Source: Thermincola carboxydiphila (GTDB lineage: Bacteria; Bacillota; Thermincolia; Thermincolales; UBA2595). From it: a stretch of 64,000 nucleotides of DNA. Every line of letters starts with the position of its first letter. Positions within the stretch are counted from its first letter, which is position 1. This document shows, piece after piece, positions 39,102 through 59,492 of the stretch. The notes under the pieces were generated by a model. The model saw only the letters and a program-made list of their open reading frames with translations, did not search any database and was not told the origin of the DNA. The DNA is taken from contig JAENYP010000012.1 in assembly GCA_016841725.1 (NCBI GenBank), positions 62,001 through 126,000 of the forward strand, in the 5' to 3' direction. The position numbers were made by a program, and so were the translations under genes.

Positions 39102-39282
39102 AGTACAATTTCCAGATATTAATAAAATTTCCTTAAAGTTTAGAGTAGACTGCATTTCATGCCTCAAAAACCGCATTTCAAACCCTGAAAGCCGCATTTT
39201 GGACCGTTTTGCCGGAAAATGTAAAAAAAGATAGTAAAATGTAAAAAGATATAAAATAAACAAAGATTCAAATTCCCCGATA

Positions 39283-39385
39283 AAAGGCAAACCCGCTGAA
39301 AGGCGGGGGCGCAAAGCCACGGGTCTAAAGCATATCACGGCCTACGCTGGTTATTGTGAGATGCTATGACAGCCGGGCTGCCGAA
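39283..39385 (+). ncRNA. Cyclic-di-GMP-I (GEMM) riboswitch
   Basis: The core matches the GEMM consensus: GGCAAACC (39286-39293) leads into a stem closed by a GAAA tetraloop (CCGCTGAAAGGCGG), then GGCGCAAAGCCACGGGTCTAA, a variable P3 arm, and the closing GACAGCCGGGCTGCC (39368-39382). A rho-independent terminator follows within 35 bases, so control is probably by attenuation. The only downstream gene on this strand is the giant YD/Rhs protein at 39777. An HD-GYP phosphodiesterase gene lies elsewhere in the window. Whether ligand turns expression on or off cannot be read from the sequence. Confidence 0.93.
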
Positions 39386-39415
39386 GCAGAATTTGAGATA
39401 TCACCTTACAGAAAG

Positions 39416-39446
39416 GCACCTATCTTATCGGGTAGGTGTTTTTTGC
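39416..39446 (+). terminator. Expression-platform terminator of the c-di-GMP riboswitch
   Basis: CACCTATC and GGGTAGGTG form a stem with a short loop, followed by TTTTTT. It lies 31 bases after the aptamer and before element C and the YD gene. Confidence 0.88.
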
Positions 39447-39448
39447 GT

Positions 39449-39684
39449 CTATAGGCTCTGGAAATGACCGTTATCGAATATGGTGAGGCATTGTACCGGT
39501 TTTCAGCACTGACGCTGGAGAAATCTAACCTTATTCTTGGCGAAGTCACGAACTAAACAACCAATCGCCATCCGTGGCTCCGGTCCGTGACTTAGCTTAG
39601 CGGATAATACTTTTCACAGCGGCATTGCAAGGAAAACCTTGTACAACACCTCACCATATTCCAGGTCATTTACGGAGCCAATAG
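39449..39684 (+). repeat. Palindromic dispersed element, copy C (different core)
   Basis: The outer arms match copies A, B and D (GGCTCTGGAAATGACC, GGTGAGGCATTGTACCG, TTTTC and the inverted GAAAACCTTGTACAACACCTCACC). The core is different and shorter: GAAGTCACG against CGTGACTT around CCGTGGCTCCGG. Total about 236 bp. It lies between the riboswitch terminator and the YD gene, so it is in the leader of that transcript. Confidence 0.85.
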
Positions 39685-39776
39685 GGGACAAAAAATCAAG
39701 AAATTCAATGCGCATAACCTTGAACATGAGATAAATATATTCGAGCTACTCAGTGTCTGCGAAGGAGGAATGGTAA

Positions 39777-42700
39777 ATGAAGAAAATCTTTGGGAAGCGA
39801 ATGTGTATTAAGGTTCTGGCTGTTGTTCTGGCCCTGTCCCTGAACCTGGGGGCTCTGGACGGGATAATAAAGGCAGCCGTGCAGGAATGGTCTCTGGGGA
39901 CCTTTACCGGCTTCCTGCGCCCGGCTGCGGCCCAAAAAGTTGCCAGCTCCGTCTATACTGACCTTGGAAATAATGAAAATGGCCGGAACAAGAACGTCCT
40001 CCCGGAAACTGTAGGGCCGAAGAAACCAAAAAACCCGGTGGCCCTGGAAGCCCAAAACAAACACGAGATGATGGAGAAAAGAACTGAGTACTCCAAAACC
40101 TTCAAAATCAGTGACAGTGAATACCGGACAGAGGTATACCAGAAACCCATCCATTACTTGAATGCAAAAAATGAATTGGTTGACATCGACAACACCCTGG
40201 TAGAATCCGCGGAAAAAGGCTTTGCCTTCGAAAACCGGGCCAACAGCTTCAAGGTACGCTTTTCCGGCAGCACCGGGGTGAATTCCGGCAATGCAAAGAG
40301 GAATTCCGCTGAGACTTCTGCCGGCAACTCCAATGACCGCAAGCTGGGCCAGATCCAGCAACAAGACCATGCCATTGCCTGGCGCCTTCTCGACAGCAAA
40401 GACATTGACGGCAAGGTTGTTCAGAACACCATCACCTACCGTAATATAACTGACCATACTGACCTCAGGTACATTATGGACGGGGCCACCCTGAAGGAGG
40501 AAATTATCCTTAATGAACCTGAAGCCCCGTCTGAATTCAGGTTTGCCCTTGATTTAAAACATCTGGAATATACTATGCTGGATAACGGCTCCATCGACTT
40601 CACCGATCCCCGGACAGGTGATGTCATCTGGAACATGCCCAAACCATACATGTATGATGCCAAGGGCGAACGTTCCCAGGCCGTCACTGCCAAAATAGGG
40701 CGTGAATACGGCTTGTTTGGCGGACTCTTCCTTACCATAACAGCAGATACTGAATGGCTCTCGGCCCGGAACAGGGCGTTTCCAGTTGTTATCGATCCGA
40801 CCCTGCAGCCAGGAGAACGCTTCGGCAGGGATACCTTTATTTCCTCAAGATACCCTGACACCGCCTACAATGATAGTGAATACCTCTATGTGGGGGATAC
40901 CTCTGCATATGGAGATACAGCAAGTTTCTTCTTTTTCCAGGATATCGTCCGGGAAGCCAATACCACAGTCACCGAGGCCACCTTCTCCATCTATGCCGCC
41001 GAAGGCAGCCCGGGCTCTGTTGACCTGTACCGGGTAGTCCCTGACTGGTTATGGGACTATGAAGTAATGACCTGGGACTACTGGCAGGCCTTATCCGCAC
41101 GGGGCGGCGCCCTGGGTGAACTTGCTGACAGCGCCTCAGGTCCTTCTTCCGGGTGGTGGAATTTTGATGTCAAAGACCTGGTCCAGAGGTGGATGGAAGA
41201 CCCGGTCAAGAAAAACGTTGGTTTCGGACTCTTCCCCGGTTCCGGCTCAGGCTATGTAAAATTCATCTCCAGCAACTACGGCGCTGATGATGACCCCAGG
41301 TCAGACACATACAACACCAGGCATCCCAAGCTGACCTATACATATACCCTCAACCCGCCCCAGCAGCCGGCAGATTTCAGCCTGGGCATAGACCGTAATA
41401 CAGGAAAAATCAGGGCTTACGGCAATGCCAGGGATGATGCCAGGATTTATCTCTCCACCGGTGACGGGGGCAGCTACACCACCTCTGCCGACAGCAGCGG
41501 TGACTGGGAAATAGATGGCCTCACCTTTGAAGAAGGCAAATACAAAACCATCTCCATGTACTACACATATGAAGTGGAAGTAACCGATGAAGAGGGCAAC
41601 ACCAGTACGGAAACCCGTACCAGTGACACCACCACCCAGAAATTCCTCATCACCAGATACAGCAAAGGCGCCCGGATCCAGAGAATGGCCAAGCTGTACT
41701 ACCTGGACGGCGCCAAAGACAACCTGATGCGCCAGGTGAATGAAATTGATGCAGAGCTGGACATGGCTGTCGGTGACTGGGTACTCATCCCCGACCCCAA
41801 GCGGGAACGCCCCTATACCGGTGGGGAAATCATCACCGACCCTGACGAGGAATACCGCCTCCGGGAAAAGATCCGGCCCTTATTTGCCAATGGCGAGATA
41901 ATCGGCAACTCTGTTGACGCCTCCACAGGGAATTTCTTTGCCATGGAAACCGACCTGGCCTTTAATGCCCTGGGCCTGCCGGTGGAATTTACCCGGTTCT
42001 TTAATGCCCAGGAACCCGAAACATACAGGGGCCCCTATGGACAGAACTGGTATCTGGGTTATGACAAAATGCTCATCAAATACAAAGACGGCTCCATCCT
42101 GGCCACCGGTGGTGACGGGGGCGGGTACTTCTTCCGCAAATCAGGCAGCCGTTATGTAGCTGACAGTGATGTCAGCGAAGAACTGACAGCCAACGGTGAC
42201 GGGACATATTCCATCATCACCAAATACGACACAGTCTACCACTTTAACCCTGACGGAATCCTGGACCGGATCACCGACCACAACGGCAACTCCGTCACCC
42301 TGACCTATGACGGGGAAGGCCTGCTGCGTGAAGTCACCGATGCCGCAGGCAGGACCTCTACCCTGTACTATGACGAAATGGGCCGGGTCATCATGATCCA
42401 GGACCCCGCAGGCCGTCAGGTGGACTATGACTATGACGCCTGGGGCCGCCTCCTCCAGGTAATCGACCCCAACGGCGGAGTCACCAGGTACGAATATGGC
42501 TATGTGGATGACCAGGGCATGGTCCATGACAATTTCCTGGTTACCAAAGTAACCGACCCCATGGGGAATGTGGCTGTAGTCAATGAATATGACAGTCAGG
42601 GCCGGGTCATTAGGCAGACTGATGCCGAAGGTTACAGTGTCAGTATGGACTACAACAGCGGCAAAACCACATATACCGACCGGAACGACAATGAATTTAT

Positions 42701-45700
42701 CTATGAATATGACAATGGATACAGGGTAACCAGTATCTCCGGCCCTGATACCGGGGATGGGGTGGTTTATGAAAATTTACCGGCACCTGCAGATGACGGC
42801 AAATTCACTGACGGGGACGATAGTGCCGTCATTGACAGGAAAGACAGCGCCGTTACTGATGGAAACGACGGCGCCGTTACTGGCGGCACTGCCGCTGATG
42901 TGATAGTGGTGACAACTGCCTCTGTAAGTAAAACGGCTGAGACAACACCTGCAGTTATCTCATCTGCGGCGACCCGCATCCTGGCAGAATACCATTATGA
43001 TGACAGGGGCAACCGGGACACGGTAACTGATGCCATGGGCAATATCACCTGCTATGATTATGATAACAAAAACAACCTCACCTCAGTCATAAATGCTGAC
43101 GGTAAAGAGACCACCTATGTATATGATGATGACAACAATGTCACTGACATCATAGATGCCATGGACAATAAGACCCACCTGGAATATGACGGAAATGGCA
43201 ACCTCCTTAAGGTGACTGATGCCGAAGGGAAGACAACCACATATACCTATTACGGCTCCGGCCAGGTGAAATCAGTATCAGACCCGGCAGGGAAAACGGT
43301 GTCCTATACCTATGACTCTGACGGGAATGCAGCCACAGTCAAAGACGGCAGGGGATATATCACCCATTACCGCTATGATGGTATCAGCAGGCTGGAAGAA
43401 GTGGAAGACCCCAAAGGTAACTCCACATATTATGAATATGATGACAACGGCAACCTCCTCAGTGAGAGAACACCGATAGGGGAGACTGTCAACAGCTACA
43501 ACTATAACAATTACCTGACAGGCACCAGGGACCCTGAGGGGAATGTGACCACCTTTGAATATGACGCCAGGGGCCTTATGGTTAGGGAAAAAGACCCCAT
43601 GGGGAAATACACCTGGATGGGTTATGACGGCAACGGCAGCCGGCTGTGGACAAAGGATGCCAAAGGCAACCGGACCGAATACCGTTATGATAACCTGGAC
43701 AGGCTGCGGGAAATAACCGAGCCTGCCGGGGATACCACCATATATTCCTATGATCTCAATGGGAACAGGACTGCTGTCACTGATGCCAAAGGTGAAACCA
43801 CCTATTATGAATATGATATCCTGAACCGCCTGGAGGCAGTTGTTGACTCCCTTGGGCGGAGGGCCGCATATACCTATGACGACCTGGGCAACACCCTCAC
43901 CTACCAAGACTTTGACGGGACATTAACCCAGTATCGCTATGACAGCCTGTCAAGGGTACAGGAGGTTATTGACCATATCGGCAGCGCCACCAAATTAGCC
44001 TATGACCGTTCCGGCAACAGGGAGACCGTAACCAATACCCTGGACCAGACATATACCTACCGTTATGATGACAGCAACAACCTGGAACAGGTAATTGACC
44101 CGGCAGGGAACATCACCCGGTTCGAGTATGATGAAACCAACAACCGTACCGCCATGATTGATGCCCTGGGCCAGAGGACCACCTATGAGTATGACGACAT
44201 GGGCCGCCTGGCAGGGGTGGTTGACCCGTTAAACCGTAATACAGAGATAGAACTTGACAAAAACGACAACAGGCTGGCCGTCACAGATGGCAGCAACAAC
44301 ACCACCAGGTTCCGCTATGATGCCAACGGACGCCTGGAACAGGTTATTGACGCCAAAAACAATATCACCAGGTACAAATATGATGATGTCGGAAACCTAG
44401 TCTTATTTACCGATGCCAATAACAATGCCACTCAATACAAGTACAACGAAAAGAACCTGCTCACAGAGGTAATCAATCCCCTGGGGCAGCAGACCTCCTA
44501 TGTCTATGACCAAAACGGGAACATCACTTCCAAGACAGACCCCAACGGGGACACCGTAGAATATGAATATGATGAACTCAACCGCCTCCTGGGGGCCTAT
44601 TACCCTGACGGCAGCTATGTCGAATACGGCTACAACGACCAGGGTAAACGGGAATGGATGGAAGACATCTATGGCACCACCTGGTATGACTATGACCAAA
44701 TGGGCCGCCTGACCTCAGTAACCAACCAGGATGACATAACCACCGAATATGGCTACAACCAACTGGGCCAGAAAACCATGGTCCGTTATCCTGACGACAA
44801 AGAAGTATCCTACAGCTATGATAACCTCAACCGCCTGGAAACCGTAACCGACCGGCTGGGCAAAGCCACCACCTACAAATATGACGCTGTAGGCCGCCGT
44901 ACTGAGACCGTATTACCAAACGGGGTAGTCACCTCATATGATTATGACACAGCAAACCAGCTTACCGGTATTGCCAGCATAAACCCGGCAGACAAGCTCC
45001 TGGCAAAGTATGAATACACCTATGACGGGGCCGGGAACCGGGACAGCTTCACCCAGACTGTAGAAGATATGGTCTATACCACAGACTATGAATATGACCC
45101 CTTAAACCAGCTCATCGGAGTAGACAACCCCGACGGCAGCCAGGTATCCTATGACTATGACCCGGCGGGCAACAGGATAAAAATGACAAAAACAGAAGGG
45201 GATTGCATCACCACAACGAAATATGATTACAACGAAGCAAATGAACTGCTCAGATACAATATGAATGAAGGTCCATATACCGAGTTCCGCTATGACAACA
45301 ACGGGAACCGGACCAGCAGAATAGAGCCAGGGGACAGGGTAACCACCTATTCTTGGGATTACGAAAACCGCCTCACCGAAGTCAACTTCCACCAGGATAA
45401 GTGGGTCGGGTTTGAATATGACGGTGACGGCAACCGTATCACCAAACTGTCAGCCATGACCCAGCCGTGGCACGAAGAGGAGATTAAACAGGATAACGGC
45501 AAGGGCAATGACCCTGAATTTGTGCCCCCCGGCCAGCAGAAAGTCAAGAAGCAGAGGGCTGACCTGGTCTATATGCTGCTGAAGAATGACAGGGGTGAGG
45601 GAGGCAAAAGCAAAGGCAACAGCGGTGGAAATGGCGGCGGCAGCAGTGGGAATAACGGTGGCGGAAACAATAGCGGCAGTACCGGCAATGGGAATGACAA

Positions 45701-47090
45701 GGACAAGCCTGACAACGGCAAAGAGAACGGAAATGATAAGGATAAAGTTAATAACGGTAAAGACGATGTTAAAGTAAAGAATAAGGACCTCGATATAAAA
45801 GATAGGGAAGCGAAAAAAGAGAAGGCCAAAGAGAAAAACGGCTACCGGCAAAAAGGTAAGTATGCCAACAGGGGCAAACACCTGGGTTGGTATAAGAATG
45901 GGAAGATACCGCAGGGACCGGAAGGTGAAAAAGTAGAGCTTACATATTACCTCAATGATGTGTCAGACCCGCTTACTCAGGTATTGATGACCTACAATGA
46001 GGAAGGCAAATTTGATGCTGCCTACACTTACGGGTTGGAGCGCATCGAAGTTGAAGCATTGGATGAGACCAGGCCCGAATCCCAGGACCCGCTTTACTAC
46101 CTCTATGACGGCTTAGGCAGTGTCACCTTTATGGTGAAACCAGATGGCAACAAACGCGATCACTACCGCTATGATGAGTTCGGCAAACCAGCGCCGGGGA
46201 ACAGCAAGCTGTCAGAGGATGGTAGGAATGTGCTGCATAACACATTTGGCTATACAGGTGAGATGTGGGATCAGGAGAGTGAACTGCTGTACCTGCGGGC
46301 GAGGTATTATGAGCCGGAGACGGGGAGGTTCCTGAGCAGGGATAGCCATGAGGGGAATCTGCAAAACCCACTTAGCAGGCATTTGTATGCATATGTAGGG
46401 AATAATCCGGTAAACTTTATAGACCCTACTGGACATGATAAATTGCTTGAAGATTTCTTTAAAAATAAAAGATTATTAGAAGAATCATTAGGTATTAAAC
46501 CACACCCCACGTTAACAATTATAGTTGAGCAACCCTACCCTAATAAAAGAACTGTTGTAAATTGGAATGAAAGAGATGTTGGACACACATTTATAAGGCT
46601 GGATATGGGAGATGGAAATGCAATATATAGAGGTCTTTATCCGTTAGGTGGGGTAACACAAGATGATATAATTAACAGAACGAGTGTTACCGGCTATATT
46701 AATTCAGAATCCCCACATTTTCCAGAATATCCAGCGGAAAATTTACATTCTTGGCATGTGGCAAAGTGGTACAATATTACGCCCGAACAGGCCAAGAAAG
46801 TTAAACAATTTATTGACAGTTATAATAAAGATTACAATATAGTAACAAACAATTGTACCACATTTGCGGTCGAAGTTTTAGCGCAGGCGGGAATAAAAAG
46901 TCCTACTTCCCAACATAATTGGAATTTACCCTATGTGTTAAAAGCTATAGCTTTTTTCAAGGGAATTGATACCTCTGACTTTTACGGTTATACTCCTGCT
47001 GATGCTGGGGAAGACATTAGAAATACATCATATTACCTTATAAATAAGAATGAAAATCTAGAGGTTATTAATAACAGAAAGGTGAGTTAA
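39777..47090 (+). CDS. Secreted YD-repeat/Rhs polymorphic toxin with papain-like C-terminal tip
   Basis: A 2437-residue protein. An N-terminal signal segment (about 8-35) indicates Sec export. A DNRLRE-like beta domain lies near 350-510 (TFISSRYPDTAYNDSEYLYV), a DUF6531-like Rhs entry near 705-760 (VDASTGNFFAMETDLAFNAL), and tens of YD repeats from about 830 to 1890. A Gly/Asn/Lys linker (about 1930-2030) precedes the Rhs core (YYLYDGLGSV near 2106, LYLRARYYEPETGRFLSRD near 2169, NPVNFIDPTG near 2213). The last 220 residues are AT-rich and unrelated: GHTFI near 2267 and NNCTTFAVEVL near 2359 supply the His and Cys of a papain/NlpC-like fold. SD AAGGAGG precedes ATG 39777. Control by the upstream riboswitch is likely. 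Confidence 0.92.
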   Translation: MKKIFGKRMCIKVLAVVLALSLNLGALDGIIKAAVQEWSLGTFTGFLRPAAAQKVASSVYTDLGNNENGRNKNVLPETVGPKKPKNPVALEAQNKHEMMEKRTEYSKTFKISDSEYRTEVYQKPIHYLNAKNELVDIDNTLVESAEKGFAFENRANSFKVRFSGSTGVNSGNAKRNSAETSAGNSNDRKLGQIQQQDHAIAWRLLDSKDIDGKVVQNTITYRNITDHTDLRYIMDGATLKEEIILNEPEAPSEFRFALDLKHLEYTMLDNGSIDFTDPRTGDVIWNMPKPYMYDAKGERSQAVTAKIGREYGLFGGLFLTITADTEWLSARNRAFPVVIDPTLQPGERFGRDTFISSRYPDTAYNDSEYLYVGDTSAYGDTASFFFFQDIVREANTTVTEATFSIYAAEGSPGSVDLYRVVPDWLWDYEVMTWDYWQALSARGGALGELADSASGPSSGWWNFDVKDLVQRWMEDPVKKNVGFGLFPGSGSGYVKFISSNYGADDDPRSDTYNTRHPKLTYTYTLNPPQQPADFSLGIDRNTGKIRAYGNARDDARIYLSTGDGGSYTTSADSSGDWEIDGLTFEEGKYKTISMYYTYEVEVTDEEGNTSTETRTSDTTTQKFLITRYSKGARIQRMAKLYYLDGAKDNLMRQVNEIDAELDMAVGDWVLIPDPKRERPYTGGEIITDPDEEYRLREKIRPLFANGEIIGNSVDASTGNFFAMETDLAFNALGLPVEFTRFFNAQEPETYRGPYGQNWYLGYDKMLIKYKDGSILATGGDGGGYFFRKSGSRYVADSDVSEELTANGDGTYSIITKYDTVYHFNPDGILDRITDHNGNSVTLTYDGEGLLREVTDAAGRTSTLYYDEMGRVIMIQDPAGRQVDYDYDAWGRLLQVIDPNGGVTRYEYGYVDDQGMVHDNFLVTKVTDPMGNVAVVNEYDSQGRVIRQTDAEGYSVSMDYNSGKTTYTDRNDNEFIYEYDNGYRVTSISGPDTGDGVVYENLPAPADDGKFTDGDDSAVIDRKDSAVTDGNDGAVTGGTAADVIVVTTASVSKTAETTPAVISSAATRILAEYHYDDRGNRDTVTDAMGNITCYDYDNKNNLTSVINADGKETTYVYDDDNNVTDIIDAMDNKTHLEYDGNGNLLKVTDAEGKTTTYTYYGSGQVKSVSDPAGKTVSYTYDSDGNAATVKDGRGYITHYRYDGISRLEEVEDPKGNSTYYEYDDNGNLLSERTPIGETVNSYNYNNYLTGTRDPEGNVTTFEYDARGLMVREKDPMGKYTWMGYDGNGSRLWTKDAKGNRTEYRYDNLDRLREITEPAGDTTIYSYDLNGNRTAVTDAKGETTYYEYDILNRLEAVVDSLGRRAAYTYDDLGNTLTYQDFDGTLTQYRYDSLSRVQEVIDHIGSATKLAYDRSGNRETVTNTLDQTYTYRYDDSNNLEQVIDPAGNITRFEYDETNNRTAMIDALGQRTTYEYDDMGRLAGVVDPLNRNTEIELDKNDNRLAVTDGSNNTTRFRYDANGRLEQVIDAKNNITRYKYDDVGNLVLFTDANNNATQYKYNEKNLLTEVINPLGQQTSYVYDQNGNITSKTDPNGDTVEYEYDELNRLLGAYYPDGSYVEYGYNDQGKREWMEDIYGTTWYDYDQMGRLTSVTNQDDITTEYGYNQLGQKTMVRYPDDKEVSYSYDNLNRLETVTDRLGKATTYKYDAVGRRTETVLPNGVVTSYDYDTANQLTGIASINPADKLLAKYEYTYDGAGNRDSFTQTVEDMVYTTDYEYDPLNQLIGVDNPDGSQVSYDYDPAGNRIKMTKTEGDCITTTKYDYNEANELLRYNMNEGPYTEFRYDNNGNRTSRIEPGDRVTTYSWDYENRLTEVNFHQDKWVGFEYDGDGNRITKLSAMTQPWHEEEIKQDNGKGNDPEFVPPGQQKVKKQRADLVYMLLKNDRGEGGKSKGNSGGNGGGSSGNNGGGNNSGSTGNGNDKDKPDNGKENGNDKDKVNNGKDDVKVKNKDLDIKDREAKKEKAKEKNGYRQKGKYANRGKHLGWYKNGKIPQGPEGEKVELTYYLNDVSDPLTQVLMTYNEEGKFDAAYTYGLERIEVEALDETRPESQDPLYYLYDGLGSVTFMVKPDGNKRDHYRYDEFGKPAPGNSKLSEDGRNVLHNTFGYTGEMWDQESELLYLRARYYEPETGRFLSRDSHEGNLQNPLSRHLYAYVGNNPVNFIDPTGHDKLLEDFFKNKRLLEESLGIKPHPTLTIIVEQPYPNKRTVVNWNERDVGHTFIRLDMGDGNAIYRGLYPLGGVTQDDIINRTSVTGYINSESPHFPEYPAENLHSWHVAKWYNITPEQAKKVKQFIDSYNKDYNIVTNNCTTFAVEVLAQAGIKSPTSQHNWNLPYVLKAIAFFKGIDTSDFYGYTPADAGEDIRNTSYYLINKNENLEVINNRKVS
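44318..44883 (+). repeat. YD-core block duplicated at 50778-51343
   Basis: About 566 bases of the main YD gene appear identical to 50778-51343 at a constant offset of 6460, while sequence on both sides differs at many sites. A second identical block is 45354-45625 against 51814-52085. A third is 45801 onward against 47595 onward. The patchwork indicates recent recombination or gene conversion between the main gene and the orphan cassettes. Confidence 0.85.
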
Positions 47091-47417
47091 ATGAAGAAAA
47101 TATTTATAGGTATTTTAATTGTAATTCTAGTTATAGTAATTGTGTTTGGAATTGTTAGAGTGATTAAAGCAATTAACTTTGTAGAATCACTTGATACTAG
47201 AGGAATTGGAAAAACACTTCATATTTCAATTGATGCAGATTGTGATGCTGAGCAGGTAAGAAAAGGTTTTAAACTTTGGTCAGAATCTGAAAGAATAAAG
47301 CTTGCAAACTACTTGGAAGAAAACAATTTAAGAATAAAAAAAGGAAGATATAAGATCAATCAAACCACAACTTTTGAAGAAGCAACTAAAATTTTTAAAT
47401 TTGAAAAGATACAGTAA
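47091..47417 (+). CDS. Candidate immunity protein for the main YD tip (single-pass membrane protein)
   Basis: A 108-residue protein starting immediately after the YD stop codon (TAAATG). One N-terminal membrane helix (about 3-25) leads into a small exposed domain. The last 30 residues (LRIKKGRYKINQTTTFEEAT) resemble the C-terminal part of YceG/MltG-like or LysM-type segments. Its AT-rich composition equals that of the tip. Placement and membrane topology fit an immunity factor against an extracytoplasmic wall-acting toxin; this is inference. Confidence 0.7.
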   Translation: MKKIFIGILIVILVIVIVFGIVRVIKAINFVESLDTRGIGKTLHISIDADCDAEQVRKGFKLWSESERIKLANYLEENNLRIKKGRYKINQTTTFEEATKIFKFEKIQ

Positions 47418-47462: not shown

Positions 47463-47586
47463 AACAGCTTCTAAGATACAGGTGGGGTCGAAACCCCACC
47501 TGTATCTTAGAAGCTGTTATCCAGGAGCTTATCGCCGCTTAACTTCCGCTTGCAAAGCGGGAGTTTTAGCGGCGGTTAGCTATCGG
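47463..47586. repeat. Double-hairpin dispersed repeat, copy 3, with perfect 26 bp inverted repeat
   Basis: The first hairpin has perfect 26-base arms, 47463-47488 and 47493-47518, around a CGAA loop. The second runs TTATCCAGGAGCTTATCGCC to GGCGGTTAGCTATCGGGCAA with inner stem CTTCCGCTTG/CAAAGCGGGAG. Orphan cassette 1 begins 8 bases downstream in mid-gene sequence. A strong transcription block for the upstream toxin-immunity unit is possible, though no T-run follows. Confidence 0.88.
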
Positions 47587-47594
47587 GCAAGAAG

Positions 47595-49022
47595 GATAGG
47601 GAAGCGAAAAAAGAGAAGGCCAAAGAGAAAAACGGCTACCGGCAAAAAGGTAAGTATGCCAACAGGGGCAAACACCTGGGTTGGTATAAGAATGGGAAGA
47701 TACCGCAGGGACCGGAAGGTGAAAAAGTAGAGCTTACATATTACCTCAATGATGTGTCAGACCCGCTTACTCAGGTATTGATGACCTACAATGAGGAAGG
47801 CAAATTTGATGCTGCCTACACTTACGGGTTGGAGCGCATCGAAGTTGAAGCATTGGATGAGACCAGGCCCGAATCCCAGGACCCGCTTTACTACCTCTAT
47901 GACGGCTTAGGCAGTGTCACCTTTATGGTGAAACCAGATGGCAACAAACGCGATCACTACCGCTATGATGAGTTCGGCAAACCAGCGCCGGGGAACAGCA
48001 AGCTGTCAGAGGATGGTAGGAATGTGCTGCATAACACATTTGGTTATACAGGTGAGATATGGGATCAGGAGAGTGAACTGCTGTACCTGCGGGCACGGTA
48101 TTATGAGCCGGAGACGGGGAGGTTCCTGAGCAGAGATAATTATTGGGGGAATTTGCAGAACCCGCTTAGCAGGCATTTATATGCATATGTGGAAAATAAT
48201 TCGGTGAATTATGTGGATCCGACGGGGAATACCAGACTATTTATAAATGGCAGGGAAATCACAAGTGGGTTCAGCGTACTTGGGGGACATTCTATTGCAG
48301 ACCCACAGTTGTTAGCATCGAATTTTAATCTTAATGCTGTCCAACAGAGAGATATATTTGGTCTTTTAACTAACAAATGGGATATTTATAGGAACGTTCA
48401 ATACAAAAAAGAATATGTTTCTGCGCTTGGCCAGATTTCAATTCGTCAATTTGCGAACGACTGGGGTATTTCTCTCTCATACAGTAAATTTGAAAATATT
48501 ATTTATCTTGGTACTCAGCTACATGTCACTGCGGAACAATTAAAGCAACTTGGATGGCATAATGTTAATGAAGATATGGTTTGGGATTTAAATAAAACTT
48601 TAGAAAAATACGATATAACCACTACGGATAGGATAAGGCACTTTATTTCTCAGTGTATGCAAGAAACAAATAATGGATTATGGCTTACAGAAGAAGACTT
48701 TGGTGATGAAACATACTTTGATAGACAACCCTACGGACGTAAGTATAGAGGTGCCGGATACATACATTTGACTTGGGAGTACAATTATGAGGCATTTGCG
48801 AATTATATGCAAGATCAAAGAATATTAACTGAGGGCGCAGACTATGTTGCACAAAACTATGCATGGGAGGTAGCTGGCTATTGGTGGAAAAATAACAACA
48901 TGAATGCCTTAATCGATTCAGGGGCTTCTGTGCGACAAGTTACTAAGAAGGTAAATGGTGGCTATGGAGGTATAGAAAACAGAGAATACTATTACTCACT
49001 TTGTTGCGACATAATAGGATAA
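47595..49022 (+). pseudogene. Orphan Rhs cassette 1: core plus GH19 lysozyme/chitinase-like tip
   Basis: Open frame without its own start signal (first GTG 47754). Bases 47595 to about 48134 repeat the main gene 45801-46340 almost exactly. The tip then diverges after NSVNYVDPTG. It contains a GH19/lysozyme-like domain: RIRHFISQCMQETNNG with the catalytic-type Glu, then YRGAGYIHLTWEYNYEAF, AGYWWKNNNMNALID and VTKKVNGGYGG. Such domains cut peptidoglycan or chitin. Recombination into the main gene through the shared core would give a full toxin with this tip. It may be silent as it stands. Confidence 0.82.
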
Positions 49023-49080
49023 TTAGCAATCTGGAAGTTATTTTAATATTGCATGAATTTTTTAGAAACAGGAGGGTACT

Positions 49081-49896
49081 ATGCTTGAAAAAACAATTTA
49101 TGTTATTTTATTGGTATTCTTTGTCTTAATATCAACATCATGTAATAATGCTAAAGATAAAAAACCAAATATTTTACCGAAGGAGCAATCAAAAACAGAA
49201 ACTGTAAAAGGGAGTCTTAATGATTTTGACGCTTCAGAGAGCCGGAAATTAGAAGTAACAAAACAAAAGTATGTTAAAAAGGAGGTCGAAATATATTATC
49301 CTCAAGTTGCTGGTTTAAACAACAGCAATAATCAGAAAAAAATTAATGAAATAATTAAGAATGAAGCATTGAAAGCTATGAACTATTACGATGGAGATTA
49401 CAGTAATCTTACTCTTAAAATAGATTATAAGATTTTATTTAATAGCACGAATTTGCTTAGTATTCAATATTCAGGACTAGGATACGTTAAAGGTGCTGCC
49501 CATCCTAACAACTTATTCTTCACAACCAACATAAATGTTAAAAAAGGAAGCAGATTTAGATTAAAAGATATTGTGAATATTGATGAAGACTTCGTAACGA
49601 AATTTAAGGGTGGGAAATTTAAAGCAAAGATTCCTAATCATATTTATGAAATAAACATATTTCCTGTAAGTAAATGGAATAAAAGTTTTGACAATGGAGA
49701 TTCACTAGACAATATAGGGACTGAAAATCATTCTGATACATTTAGCTATTTGACAAGAGATTCTTTAGGAATCAGTATAGGTGTTTCCCATGCTGCAGGG
49801 GACCATGGGGAATTTGAAATCAAGTATCAAGATATAGCAGATAACCTAAAAGCGGAAAACGAGATATGGAAAGAATTACTTCCTGAGTTTGGTTAA
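49081..49896 (+). CDS. Lipoprotein with RsiV/PdaC-like DUF4163-DUF3298 region; candidate immunity to the lysozyme tip
   Basis: A 271-residue protein. The signal peptide ends in the lipobox STSC (Cys near 21). Residues about 65-120 (EIYYPQVAGLNNSNNQKKIN) look like DUF4163, and the rest (AAHPNNLFFTTNINVKKGSR, then ISIGVSHAAGDHGEF) like DUF3298. This pair forms the extracellular part of RsiV, which binds lysozyme. Placed right behind a GH19 lysozyme-like tip, it is a reasonable lysozyme-inhibiting immunity protein. AGGAGGG precedes ATG 49081. Base composition is AT-rich like the tip. Function is inferred. Confidence 0.78.
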   Translation: MLEKTIYVILLVFFVLISTSCNNAKDKKPNILPKEQSKTETVKGSLNDFDASESRKLEVTKQKYVKKEVEIYYPQVAGLNNSNNQKKINEIIKNEALKAMNYYDGDYSNLTLKIDYKILFNSTNLLSIQYSGLGYVKGAAHPNNLFFTTNINVKKGSRFRLKDIVNIDEDFVTKFKGGKFKAKIPNHIYEINIFPVSKWNKSFDNGDSLDNIGTENHSDTFSYLTRDSLGISIGVSHAAGDHGEFEIKYQDIADNLKAENEIWKELLPEFG

Positions 49897-49956
49897 AAGA
49901 ATAGAAAAAATTTTGTAGAATATATTTTAAGTTGATTTTTATTTATATGTAATAGT

Positions 49957-49990
49957 AAAAACCTCAAGGGTAGAGTTCCTTGAGGTTTTG
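49957..49990 (+). terminator. Terminator after the cassette 1 immunity gene
   Basis: AAAACCTCAAGG and CCTTGAGGTTTT form a 12 bp stem with a short loop; A-tract and T-tract flank it, so it may work both ways. Confidence 0.85.
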
Positions 49991-50041
49991 CTCACCATTG
50001 AAGTGCCGAAGTAAAAAAAGCTACTACTGGCTGGGAAAACA

Positions 50042-50674
50042 ATGTCCTATCCTTTGCTCCCCATGGGGAAATACACCCACATGGGTTATGACGGCAACGG
50101 CAGCCGGCTGTGGACCAGGGATGCTAAAAACAACCGGACTGATTACGGCTATGATGACCTGGGCCGGCTGCGGGAAATTATCGAGCCTGCCGGGGATACC
50201 ACCACATATTCCTATGACCCCAATGGGAACAGGACAGCAGTCACAGATGCCAAAGAGGAAACCACATACTATGAATATGACACCTTAAACCGCCTGGAGG
50301 CAGTCAAAGACCCCCTGGGGCGGCGAGCCGTATATACCTATGACGACCTGGGCAATACCCTCACCTACACAGACTTTGACGGGACAGTCACCGAGTACCG
50401 CTATGACAGCCTGTCAAGGGTACAACAGGTTATTGACCATATAGGGAGCGCCACCAAATTTACCTATGACCGTTCCGGCGACAGGGAGACAGTGACCAAT
50501 ACCCTGGGCCGGACATATACCTACCGTTATGATGACAACAATAACTTAGAAAAGGTAATCGACCCGGCAGGAAACATCACCCGGTTTGAGTATGATGAGA
50601 ACAACAACCGGACCGCCATGATTGACGCCATGGGCCAGAGGACCGCCTATGAATATGACGAAGCCGCCTGGTAA
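50042..50674 (+). pseudogene. Orphan YD-repeat cassette 2, 5' part
   Basis: From about 50060 the sequence is homologous to the main YD gene from about 43598 (KYTHMGYDGNGSRLW). The 210-residue frame ends prematurely because four bases (ATGG) are missing at about 50663 relative to the main gene and to the fragment at 54880. No Rhs N-terminal domains, signal peptide or promoter are present, so it is a stored or decaying cassette. Confidence 0.85.
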
Positions 50675-53115
50675 GGGTAGCTGACCCGTTAAACCGTGAT
50701 ACCGAGATAGAACTTGACAAAAACGGCAACAGGCTGGCAGTCACCGATGGCAGCAACAATACCACCAGGTTCGGCTATGATGCCAACGGACGCCTGGAAC
50801 AGGTTATTGACGCCAAAAACAATATCACCAGGTACAAATATGATGATGTCGGAAACCTAGTCTTATTTACCGATGCCAATAACAATGCCACTCAATACAA
50901 GTACAACGAAAAGAACCTGCTCACAGAGGTAATCAATCCCCTGGGGCAGCAGACCTCCTATGTCTATGACCAAAACGGGAACATCACTTCCAAGACAGAC
51001 CCCAACGGGGACACCGTAGAATATGAATATGATGAACTCAACCGCCTCCTGGGGGCCTATTACCCTGACGGCAGCTATGTCGAATACGGCTACAACGACC
51101 AGGGTAAACGGGAATGGATGGAAGACATCTATGGCACCACCTGGTATGACTATGACCAAATGGGCCGCCTGACCTCAGTAACCAACCAGGATGACATAAC
51201 CACCGAATATGGCTACAACCAACTGGGCCAGAAAACCATGGTCCGTTATCCTGACGACAAAGAAGTATCCTACAGCTATGATAACCTCAACCGCCTGGAA
51301 ACCGTAACCGACCGGCTGGGCAAAGCCACCACCTACAAATATGATGCCATAGGCCGCCGTACCGAAACCGTCTTACCAAACGGTGTAGTCACCTCATATG
51401 ATTATGACACAGCAAACCAGCTTACCGGTATAGCCAGTATAAACCCGGCAGATAAGCTCCTGGCCAAATATGAATACACATATGACAGGGCCGGGAACAG
51501 GGACAGCTTCACCCAGACAGTGGAAGACATGGTCTATACCACTGATTATGAATATGACCCCCTAAACCAGCTCACCGGGGTGGACAACCCCAATGGCAGC
51601 CGGGTAACCTATGACTATGACCCGGCAGGTAACAGGATAAAAATGACAAAAGCAGAAGGGGATTGCATCACCACAACGAAATATGAATATGATGCAGCAA
51701 ATGAACTTTTAAAATACAACATGAATGAAGGCCCCTATACCGAATTCCGCTATGACAATAACGGGAACAGGACCAGCAGAATAGAGCCCGGGGACCGGGT
51801 AACCACCTATACATGGGATTACGAAAACCGCCTCACCGAAGTCAACTTCCACCAGGATAAGTGGGTCGGGTTTGAATATGACGGTGACGGCAACCGTATC
51901 ACCAAACTGTCAGCCATGACCCAGCCGTGGCACGAAGAGGAGATTAAACAGGATAACGGCAAGGGCAATGACCCTGAATTTGTGCCCCCCGGCCAGCAGA
52001 AAGTCAAGAAGCAGAGGGCTGACCTGGTCTATATGCTGCTGAAGAATGACAGGGGTGAGGGAGGCAAAAGCAAAGGCAACAGCGGCAGCAGTGGGAATAA
52101 CGGTGGCGGTAATGGCGGCGGCAGCAGTGGGAATAACGGTGGCGGTAATGGCGGCGGCAGCAGTGGGAATAACGGTGGCGGTAATAGCGGCGGCAGTAAC
52201 GGCAATGGGAATGACAAGGATAAGCCTGACAACGGCAAAGAGAACGGAAATGATAAGGATAAAGTTAATAACAGTCAAGCTGACGTTAAAGTAAAGAATA
52301 AAGACCTCGATATAAAAGAAAGAAAAGCGAAAAAAGACGAGGCCAAGGCTAAAAATGGCTACCGGCAAAAAGGCAAGTATTCCAACCGGGGCAAACACCT
52401 TGGTTGGTACAAGAACGGGAAGATACCGCAGGGACCGGAAGGTGAAAAAGTAGAAGTCACATATTACCTGAATGATGTGTCAGACCCGCTTACCCAGGTT
52501 CTGATGACCTATAACGAGGAAGGCAATTTTGATGCTGCCTATACATACGGTTTAGAGCGCATCGAAGTTGAGGCCCTTGACGAAACCAGGCCGGAATCCC
52601 AGGACCCGCTATACTACCTCTATGACGGCTTAGGCAGTGTCACCTTTATGGTGAAGCCTGACGGGAACAAACGTGACCACTACCGTTATGATGAGTTCGG
52701 CAAACCAGCGCCGGGGAACAGCAAGCTGTCAGAGGATGGTAGGAATGTGCTGCATAACACCTTTGGCTATATAGGTGAGATGTGGGATCAGGAGAGTGAA
52801 CTGCTGTACCTGCGGGCAAGGTATTATGAGCCGGAGACGGGAAGGTTCCTGAGCAGGGATAGTTATGAGGGGAATCTACAGAACCCGCTGAGCAGGCATT
52901 TGTATGCTTATGTGGGGAATAATCCGGTAAATTTTGTGGATCCAAGTGGAAATGTTTACTTAAAAAGGGGAATGCAAGGTTCGGAGGTGTCTTTAGTTCA
53001 GTCAATGTTAGCAGACTTAGACTATTTCGATGGACCTATAAATGGACATTTTGGCCCAATTACTGAACAGGCAGTAAATGATTTTAAGGGATCTATCATC
53101 TGGGTAATAATATAG
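50665..53115 (+). pseudogene. Orphan YD-repeat cassette 2, middle part ending in a peptidoglycan-binding domain
   Basis: The YD frame resumes after the 4-base deletion and runs through the linker and Rhs core (665 residues from ATG 51118). The linker has three 36-bp units where the main gene has one. After NPVNFVDPSG comes a peptidoglycan-binding_1-like segment (YLKRGMQGSEVSLVQSMLAD, then YFDGPINGHFGPITEQAVND). The frame then breaks at 53088-53090; restoring one G gives KGIYHLGNNIDDGTWGVVGD and joins the next frame. Confidence 0.83.
52087..52194 (+). repeat. 36-bp tandem repeat in the Rhs linker (three units)
   Basis: Units at 52087-52122, 52123-52158 and 52159-52194 each encode SSGNNGGGNGGG (the last has NSGG). 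The main gene has a single unit at about 45640-45675. The flexible linker precedes the toxin-bearing core and varies in length by unit number. Confidence 0.9.
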
Positions 53116-57498: not shown

Positions 57499-57522
57499 AG
57501 ATTCAATATATTTTCAATTCAA

Positions 57523-57806
57523 AAGGTGATGAAGGGGAATTTATACATGCTGAAGGCCTCCAGAGAGCCGGGGAAGCTGAAAACCGGCGCCGGATTATGT
57601 ATAAGCTACTCACCCCTGAACCGGCAGCTGAACCGCATTCTTTGAGTGCCCAGTAGGTTTGCCCGGTGCAGACCGTTATCATGCAGGCGAAAACATCAAT
57701 TGAGAGGCCGTTTTATTATATTAATAAATGGCAAACAGGGTGGTACCGCGGAAGGTTATTAACCTCTCGTCCCTGATAGGGCTGTCTATCGGGCGGGAGG
57801 TTTTTA
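57523..57806 (+). ncRNA. T-box riboswitch leader of ilvD
   Basis: The T-box AGGGTGGTACCGCGG lies at 57737-57751. The terminator follows at 57761-57806 (ACCTCTCGTCCCTGATAG against CTATCGGGCGGGAGGTTTTT). Stem I is supported by TTATACAT (57541-57548) against ATGTATAA (57597-57604) with an AGAGAGCCGG distal segment. The likely specifier is CTC (57609-57611, Leu) in GCTACTCACC, by analogy with the leucine-specific ilv-leu leader of Bacillus; this reading is tentative. Uncharged tRNA would stabilise the antiterminator and raise ilv expression. Confidence 0.92.
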
Positions 57807-57827: not shown

Positions 57828-59492
57828 ATGAGAAGCGATGCTGTTAAAAAAGGATTGGAAAAAGCGCCCCACCGCTCCCTCTTTAAAGCGATGGGATATA
57901 CTGATGAGGAACTCGCCAGGCCGCTTATCGGGGTTGTCAACTCTCAAAATGAAGTGGTACCCGGACACATTCATCTGGATACTATTGCTGAGGCGGTTAA
58001 GGCCGGGGTGCGCATGGCTGGAGGTACGCCCATTGAATTTCCGGCAATCGGGGTTTGTGACGGTATTGCCATGAACCATGCCGGAATGAAGTATTCACTG
58101 GCAAGCCGTGAGATTATTGCTGATTCTGTGGAGATCATGACACAGGCCCATGCTTTTGACGGTCTTGTCCTGATACCCAATTGTGACAAGATTATTCCCG
58201 GGATGCTGATGGGCGCTGCCCGCCTGAATGTCCCCGCAATAGTCGTCAGCGGCGGGCCGATGCTCACAGGCAGGCACCGGGGAAGGGACTTTTCTTTAAG
58301 TAATATTTTTGAAGGAGTCGGCGCTGTCCGTGGCGGCAGGATGACTGAGGATGAGCTGGCAGAGATGGAGGAGTCAGCGTGTCCGGGCTGCGGTTCATGT
58401 GCGGGTATGTTTACCGCAAACACCATGAACTGCCTGACAGAGGTGCTCGGGATGTCCCTGCCGGGGAGCGGCACCATTCCGGCAGTAACGGCAGCCAGGA
58501 AGAGGCTGGCGAAACAGACCGGCATGAAAATAATGGAACTGGTTGCCCGGGATATCAAGCCTCTTGATATTATGAATAAGGAAACCTTCCATAATGCCAT
58601 AGCTGCAGACATGGCCCTTGGGGGGTCAACAAACACAGTGCTCCATCTGCCGGCAATTGCCCATGAGTGTGGTTTTGAGCTTGACCTTGACAATTTCCAG
58701 AAGATTAATGAAAAGACACCACATTTATGTAAGTTGAGCCCTGCAGGGAGCCACCATATCCAGGACCTGAATGAAGCCGGCGGGATTCCCGCAGTGCTGG
58801 CTGAACTGAGCAAAAAGGGGATTCTTTATCTGGACCGGCCGACAGTAACCGGAAAGACTGTCAGGGAGAATATTGCCGGAAAAGAGATACGGGACCCCGA
58901 GGTAATCAGGCCTCTGGACAATCCATACAGTGAAAAAGGCGGCCTGGCAATTCTTAAAGGAAACATTGCTCCTGACGGGGCTGTTGTTAAGGAAGCCGCC
59001 GTAGCCCCTGAAATGCATCATCACAAAGGACCGGCCAGGGTTTTTGAATCAGAGGAGGAAACGGTTCAGGCGTTAATTGACGGCAGGGTTAATAAAGGAG
59101 ATGTTATTGTAATCAGGTACGAAGGTCCCAAAGGCGGCCCCGGAATGAGGGAGATGCTGACTCCGACTGCAATGGTGGCCGGCCTGGGACTGGATAAGGA
59201 TGTGGCTCTGATTACTGACGGAAGATTTTCCGGGGCCACCAGAGGAGCGTCTATTGGCCATGTTTCTCCGGAAGCCGCCGAAGGAGGTTCCATAGCGGCA
59301 GTGCGGGATGGGGATATTATTGAAATAGACATTCCCAACTGCAGCTTAAATGTCCTGATAAGTGATGCGGAACTGAAGGCAAGGCTTGCCGAATGGCAGC
59401 CCCGAGAACCCAGAGTCAAGAAAGGTTACCTGGCCCGTTATGCCAAGCTGGTGACATCTGCCAGTACAGGGGCAGTGCTCAAAGACAGTTAA
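57828..59492 (+). CDS. ilvD: Dihydroxy-acid dehydratase
   Basis: A 554-residue Fe-S enzyme of branched-chain amino acid synthesis that dehydrates dihydroxy-isovalerate and -methylvalerate. Cluster and metal ligand segments are [12 protein letters not shown] and [20 protein letters not shown]. Other marks are [14 protein letters not shown] and [13 protein letters not shown]. First gene of the T-box-controlled ilv unit; AGGGAGGGG precedes the ATG. Confidence 0.97.

What the first reader, a model, noticed from the sequence alone, without database searches (positions are those of the whole stretch)
39283..39777. Cyclic-di-GMP riboswitch controlling a giant polymorphic toxin
A clear GEMM-I aptamer plus terminator precedes the YD gene with no other gene between. 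GEMM targets are usually motility, adhesion or secreted-surface genes; linking c-di-GMP to a wall-targeting toxin would join biofilm or surface state to antagonism.
Basis: partly seen in the sequence, partly recalled or inferred. Interest (0 to 1): 0.85.

Follow-up and report, generated by a model that had tools for sequence, protein, structure and literature searches.

The report
c-di-GMP riboswitch on WapA-like toxin gene
A standard RNA sensor for the bacterial "swim or settle" signal c-di-GMP sits in front of a giant, toxin-like surface protein gene, and the same pairing recurs in related bacteria, so this group probably ties contact-dependent warfare to the lifestyle signal, most likely shutting the weapon off when the signal is high.

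Summary
Observation confirmed. Window 39276-39385 (+) matches Rfam c-di-GMP-I at 83.7 bits (E 5e-15, threshold 35), has the canonical distinguishing base, and is followed by an intrinsic terminator (39416-39443). A 2437-aa secreted, WapA-like YD/RHS gene starts at 39777.

The link is conserved. All five RHS clusters in this genome are led by such an aptamer, and so is every close homologue of this N-terminal family found in related genera and a second family, where the start codon follows the terminator closely. Most YD genes with other N-termini lack it.

In the window a 226-bp MITE-like multicopy element (39454-39679) has inserted between terminator and gene; it shows no strong + strand promoter.

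The terminator loop is complementary to aptamer end strands, which fits an OFF switch: c-di-GMP terminates transcription.

"Wall-targeting" is unproven for this gene's own tip but fits sibling tips (VanY/M15, GH19 endolysin-like, SleB-like), several followed by immunity-like membrane or lipoprotein genes.

No paper linking c-di-GMP riboswitches to Rhs/WapA toxins was found in the open-access library. Regulation, ligand response and toxicity are untested.

The parts
39150..39205 (+). three 21-bp-spaced direct repeats (xCGCATTT...), putative binding array of an unknown transcription regulator
   Evidence: coordinates; in this genome arrays of this spacing sit at six places, five of them just upstream of c-di-GMP-I aptamers; reversed control pattern 0 hits
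39269..39275 (+). CAAAUUC, 5' strand of an extended closing helix (partner GAAUUUG 39389-39395)
   Evidence: complementarity; kept in most homologous leaders
39276..39385 (+). c-di-GMP-I riboswitch aptamer (RF01051), canonical GCAAAG
   Evidence: cmscan 83.7 bits, E 5e-15; distinguishing base compared with RF03167
39276..39283 (+). CCCGAUAA, proposed 5' antiterminator strand, complementary to terminator loop UUAUCGGG 39425-39432
   Evidence: p 0.008 for this leader against shuffled loops
39416..39443 (+). intrinsic terminator with U6 run
   Evidence: folding; conserved in homologous leaders
39454..39679 (.). MITE-like element with long imperfect terminal inverted repeats, inserted in the leader
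   Evidence: (81 matches in the genome); absent in the G002 leader
39777..47090 (+). WapA-like YD/RHS gene, 2437 aa: signal-peptide-like N-terminus, DNRLRE, DUF6531, YD repeats, Rhs core, variable tip
46434..47087 (+). variable C-terminal tip, weakly Lnb_N/PPPDE (papain-like)
   Evidence: Lnb_N 22.4 bits at cut-off 22.2; no PDB relative; structure model poor
47091..47417 (+). small membrane-anchored protein directly after the stop codon, candidate immunity gene
   Evidence: position and N-terminal hydrophobic stretch; weak MltG similarity
47580..49022 (+). orphan Rhs-core fragment (stop-to-stop frame; listed ORF starts 47754) with a GH19 endolysin-like tip
   Evidence: E 1.6e-10 to a phage endolysin
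49081..49896 (+). lipoprotein-like gene with PdaC domain, weak RsiV (lysozyme-binding) similarity; candidate immunity gene of the GH19-like tip
   Evidence: PF13739 E 6e-9; RsiV E 0.002, far below cut-off
50042..53115 (+). further orphan YD/Rhs fragments, the last with a peptidoglycan-binding tip
   Evidence: (PF01471 E 4.6e-9)

Best explanation
The leader is a true c-di-GMP-I riboswitch that controls, by transcription termination, a WapA-like polymorphic-toxin gene; the most likely direction is OFF. Without ligand, the aptamer's 5' end strand (CCCGAUAA) pairs with the terminator loop (UUAUCGGG), blocks the terminator, and the gene is transcribed. With c-di-GMP bound, the aptamer ends are locked in their closing helix, the terminator forms and the gene is silent. 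The weapon would be made at low c-di-GMP (motile, pre-biofilm) and switched off on settling. Shown: aptamer, terminator, conserved linkage. Inferred: antiterminator, OFF direction, c-di-GMP as the effective ligand in this cell, toxin activity. The MITE-like element is a lineage-specific insertion that lengthens the leader without an obvious bypass promoter.
For: Aptamer 83.7 bits with the canonical base that separates it from the GGC variant. All five RHS clusters of the genome are aptamer-led; aptamer and terminator precede all close N-terminal homologues in five other genomes with the start codon close behind. Terminator loops are complementary to aptamer end strands (Fisher p 4e-7 over 14 leaders), and the long-range helix appears in near-complete transcripts. 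Genome encodes GGDEF domains (16 hits). C. difficile class-I switches act uniformly as OFF (PMC6200980). B. subtilis WapA works outside biofilms (PMC8321402).
Against: No expression or binding data. Leaders are related, so the p value overstates independence; single-leader tests are modest and G009, G004 and C33a give weak values. One C. difficile class-I locus rose with c-di-GMP in RNA-seq. The MITE-like insertion could carry a weak promoter (8/12 sites). No good sigma-70 promoter was found upstream of the aptamer either.
Confidence: 0.68

Rival explanations
1. Same riboswitch and gene, but an ON switch: c-di-GMP binding favours read-through, so the protein is made in the sessile, biofilm state.
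For: c-di-GMP usually raises adhesion and surface genes; one C. difficile class-I locus rose with c-di-GMP. In the full-length predicted folds the terminator usually forms together with the aptamer helices without ligand.
Against: The terminator does not overlap the aptamer, and the complementary strands found would be freed, not formed, when the ligand locks the aptamer ends.
Confidence: 0.2
2. The regulated protein is not a weapon but a secreted YD-shell surface protein (adhesin or wall-remodelling enzyme) whose variable tips serve the cell's own envelope.
For: Tips are envelope enzymes (VanY, GH19-like, SleB-like) also used in self-remodelling; c-di-GMP-I regulons hold many surface proteins; this gene's own tip has no confident assignment.
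Against: Constant core with swapped tips at a sharp DPxG junction, orphan tip cassettes, and a different membrane protein or lipoprotein gene after many tips, the layout of toxin-immunity loci.
Confidence: 0.25
3. In this genome the MITE-like insertion has uncoupled the gene from the riboswitch, which is now a relic at this locus.
For: 226-bp insertion between terminator and gene; one paralogue (C33) lost its N-terminal codons beside a MITE remnant.
Against: No + strand promoter of 9/12 or better in the gap; aptamer, terminator, RBS and the 2437-aa frame are intact; the paralogues keep aptamer and terminator.
Confidence: 0.12

Closest known systems
c-di-GMP-I (GEMM-I) transcription-termination riboswitches, e.g. 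class I of Clostridioides difficile
   Same: Aptamer class, canonical ligand-region base, terminator downstream; OFF behaviour in C. difficile (PMC6200980)
   Different: Target gene: known targets there are flagella, an adhesin, a protease and others, not Rhs/WapA toxins; loop-to-aptamer complementarity is proposed here only from sequence
WapA of Bacillus subtilis (secreted YD/Rhs contact-dependent toxin with WapI immunity)
   Same: Signal-peptide-like N-terminus, YD repeats, Rhs core, variable tip, small gene directly after; WapA acts outside biofilms (PMC8321402)
   Different: WapA carries a tRNase tip and is repressed through DegU; here a c-di-GMP riboswitch leads the gene and tips look like envelope enzymes
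Rhs orphan-tip loci
   Same: Core fragments with alternative tips downstream of the main gene (47580-53115)
   Different: Rearrangement here is inferred from layout only

Membership tests
c-di-GMP-I riboswitch (RF01051) | Full-length match to the covariance model above the curated score | tested here: met
   83.7 bits against 35, model 1-87
c-di-GMP-I riboswitch (RF01051) | Canonical bases at the ligand site (GGCAAA, GCAAAG, GCUGCC) | tested here: met
   alignment; numbering of contacts from general knowledge
c-di-GMP-I riboswitch (RF01051) | Binds c-di-GMP and changes expression | not testable with these tools
   needs in-line probing and termination assays
c-di-GMP-I-GGC variant (RF03167) | GCGAAG (G) in place of GCAAAG | tested here: not met
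   YD aptamers read GCAAAG; RF03167 consensus reads GCGAAG
WapA-like Rhs polymorphic toxin | Signal-peptide-like N-terminus, YD/RHS repeats and Rhs-associated core | tested here: met
   RHS_repeat E 5e-133, TIGR01643, TIGR03696, DNRLRE; signal peptide judged by eye
WapA-like Rhs polymorphic toxin | Constant core with interchangeable C-terminal tips | tested here: met
   tips differ after a shared DPxG junction in five clusters and G003
WapA-like Rhs polymorphic toxin | Tip is toxic and neutralised by a cognate immunity protein | not testable with these tools
   only layout: a small membrane-anchored ORF starts right after the stop codon
   only weak Lnb_N/PPPDE match; no PDB relative; poor model
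MITE | Short non-coding element, terminal inverted repeats, multicopy | tested here: met
   226 bp, long imperfect repeats, 81 matches; a matching transposase was not looked for

The most novel reading that the evidence does not exclude
In a small, little-studied class of Firmicutes, a whole family of contact-dependent, envelope-attacking Rhs toxins is placed under c-di-GMP by dedicated OFF riboswitches, often together with an unknown regulator that binds 21-bp repeats, so that antagonism belongs to the motile state and is shut down on settling.
Probability: 0.4. Interest if true: 0.75.

Novelty: new variant of a known kind. Interest (0 to 1): 0.6.

Why it matters
c-di-GMP is the main motile-to-sessile signal, but its direct control of contact-dependent toxins through a riboswitch was not found in the open-access papers searched. 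A conserved riboswitch on this toxin family makes the question 'in which lifestyle do bacteria fight their neighbours?' directly testable with one leader and one ligand.

Tried and rejected
Variant-ligand reading (RF03167 as top hit in relatives): rejected, the distinguishing base is A. Chance adjacency: rejected by conservation. Small ORF MTVIEYGEALYRF... in the gap as a gene: rejected, it begins in the MITE terminal repeat. Antiterminator between aptamer 3' strand GGGCUGCC and terminator 5' arm: possible (-8 to -15 kcal/mol) but no better than shuffles. Structure prediction of the tip failed (mean pLDDT 47), so no fold search was run. One repeat pattern search had the wrong spacing and was redone. 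No plasmid record holds a relative of the tip. Literature searches joining c-di-GMP or riboswitch with RHS repeat, polymorphic toxin, YD repeat, WapA or Rhs gave nothing relevant; subscription papers are not covered.

Full report
1. The observation. A covariance-model scan of the whole window finds a c-di-GMP-I aptamer at 39276-39385 on the + strand, full length, 83.7 bits, E 5e-15. About 30 nt further on lies CACCUAUC-UUAUCG-GGUAGGUG-UUUUUU (39416-39443), a good intrinsic terminator by folding. The simple consensus scanner did not list it, probably because the stem can run into the U-tract. The next real gene is the 2437-aa YD ORF at 39777-47090, with AAGGAGG at 39762-39768.

2. Ligand class. 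In relatives the best Rfam model is often RF03167 (c-di-GMP-I-GGC), a variant. Its consensus reads GCGAAG where the common aptamer has GCAAAG. The YD aptamers read GCAAAG, so at that position they are ordinary c-di-GMP-I aptamers. The genome has 20 such aptamers and 16 GGDEF hits. Other genes downstream of them look, by eye, like a flagellar (flgB-like) operon, a Flp-pilin region and a c-di-GMP-turnover (HD-domain) protein.

3. The link is conserved. All 127 RHS-repeat hits in this genome fall in five clusters (window, C33, C19, C23, C25), each led by a c-di-GMP-I aptamer. A search of 60 relatives found close homologues of the YD N-terminus in G002 (same genus), G003 (its leader reads the same as the HGW-Firmicutes-14 contig), G007, and G009 (another family), plus the shared leader peptide twice in G004. 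Every one has the aptamer and a terminator directly upstream, with the start codon close behind the terminator. The distant homologues outside the class (26-32% identity) show no aptamer in the DNA held. YD genes with other N-termini inside the class mostly lack it too; G007:C22 is an exception. So the aptamer tracks this gene family. The class holds only ten genomes in the collection, so the sample is small.

4. The gap is a MITE-like insertion. Window 39454-39679 is a 226-bp element with long imperfect terminal repeats (GGCTCTGGAAATGACC...GGTCATTTACGGAGCC) that matches many places in the genome, with two core types. TA at both edges of several copies suggests a TA target site (by eye). G002 shows the leader without it: TTTTTTGCGTCT-GCGAAGGAGGAATG. 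The C23 paralogue keeps only the element's ends, and in the C33 paralogue a deletion runs from the element into the YD frame, which lacks its first 123 codons. No + strand sigma-70 site of 9/12 or better lies between terminator and gene; three 8/12 sites do. A bypass promoter is not excluded but has no positive evidence.

5. How it probably works. The aptamer's first bases, CCCGAUAA, are the exact complement of the terminator loop UUAUCGGG, and when the transcript is nearly complete this long-range helix appears in the predicted minimum-energy fold of several leaders. Over the leaders for which a terminator was found, loops are complementary to an aptamer end strand more than shuffled loops (Fisher p 4e-7 over 14 leaders after removing near-identical copies). 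Because the helix competes with the closing helix of the ligand-bound aptamer, c-di-GMP should favour the terminator: an OFF switch. That agrees with the uniform OFF behaviour of class-I switches tested in C. difficile (PMC6200980) and with the activity of B. subtilis WapA outside biofilms (PMC8321402). Limits: single-leader statistics are modest, the leaders are related, and nothing was measured.

6. What the gene is. Domains: signal-peptide-like N-terminus, DNRLRE, DUF6531, YD repeats, Rhs core, then a tip. Across paralogues the core is constant up to a DPxG motif and the tips then differ: VanY/M15 (C23, E 6e-13), SleB-like (G003, below the Pfam cut-off), Zn-phospholipase C-like (C19, below the cut-off), GH19 endolysin-like (window orphan, E 1.6e-10 to a phage endolysin) and a peptidoglycan-binding tip (window orphan). 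After many tips lies a different membrane protein or lipoprotein gene, as expected if the effectors act in the envelope; the one after the GH19-like tip carries a PdaC domain and weakly resembles RsiV, an anti-sigma factor known (general knowledge) to bind lysozyme. This is the layout of a polymorphic toxin family. The window gene's own tip is only weakly Lnb_N/PPPDE-like, its structure model failed and it has no PDB relative, so 'wall-targeting' remains unproven for it.

7. A second layer. Three direct repeats with 21-bp spacing lie at 39150-39205. In this genome arrays of that spacing occur at six places, five of them just upstream of c-di-GMP-I aptamers; the sixth precedes a tyrosine-recombinase gene. 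In relatives they precede secreted proteins, response-regulator-like genes and the same recombinase, with no match for the reversed control pattern. They probably mark the site of an unknown transcription regulator.

8. Verdict. The toxin label is likely for the family but untested, and the wall label is unproven for this gene. Riboswitch and toxin family are each known kinds; their conserved pairing was not found in the open-access papers searched.

Noticed in passing
39150-39205; also upstream of other c-di-GMP-I aptamers in this genome and of genes in G001, G002, G003, G004, G006, G007, G008: A 21-bp direct-repeat motif (CCGCATTTYAACCCNNGAAA-like) marks what looks like a family-wide regulon with an unknown regulator.
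   Followed up: partly
39454-39679: MITE-like element with two core types; matches in many places of the genome; ends preserved but interior lost in the C23 paralogue.
   Followed up: partly
47580-53115: Orphan Rhs-core fragments with alternative tips downstream of the main gene, suggesting a tip-swapping reservoir.
   Followed up: partly
49081-49896: PdaC-domain lipoprotein with weak RsiV similarity follows the GH19 endolysin-like orphan tip; possibly a lysozyme-inhibitor-like immunity protein.
   Followed up: partly
L106 (G000:C3:40008), L140, L120: The same 21-bp repeats precede a conserved tyrosine recombinase (Phage_int_SAM_4) in three genomes of the genus.
   Followed up: no
57520-57777: T-box leader (RF00230, 96.2 bits) upstream of the ORF at 57828.
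   Followed up: no
L072 (G000:C11:87003 and 87825): Two c-di-GMP-I aptamers about 800 nt apart near Flp-pilin-like genes, both with terminator loops complementary to the aptamer 3' strand.
   Followed up: partly
L062 (G000:C25:371792): Aptamer-led gene with the shared leader peptide but a different short protein, followed by YD fragments and an extra GC-rich hairpin before the start codon.
   Followed up: no
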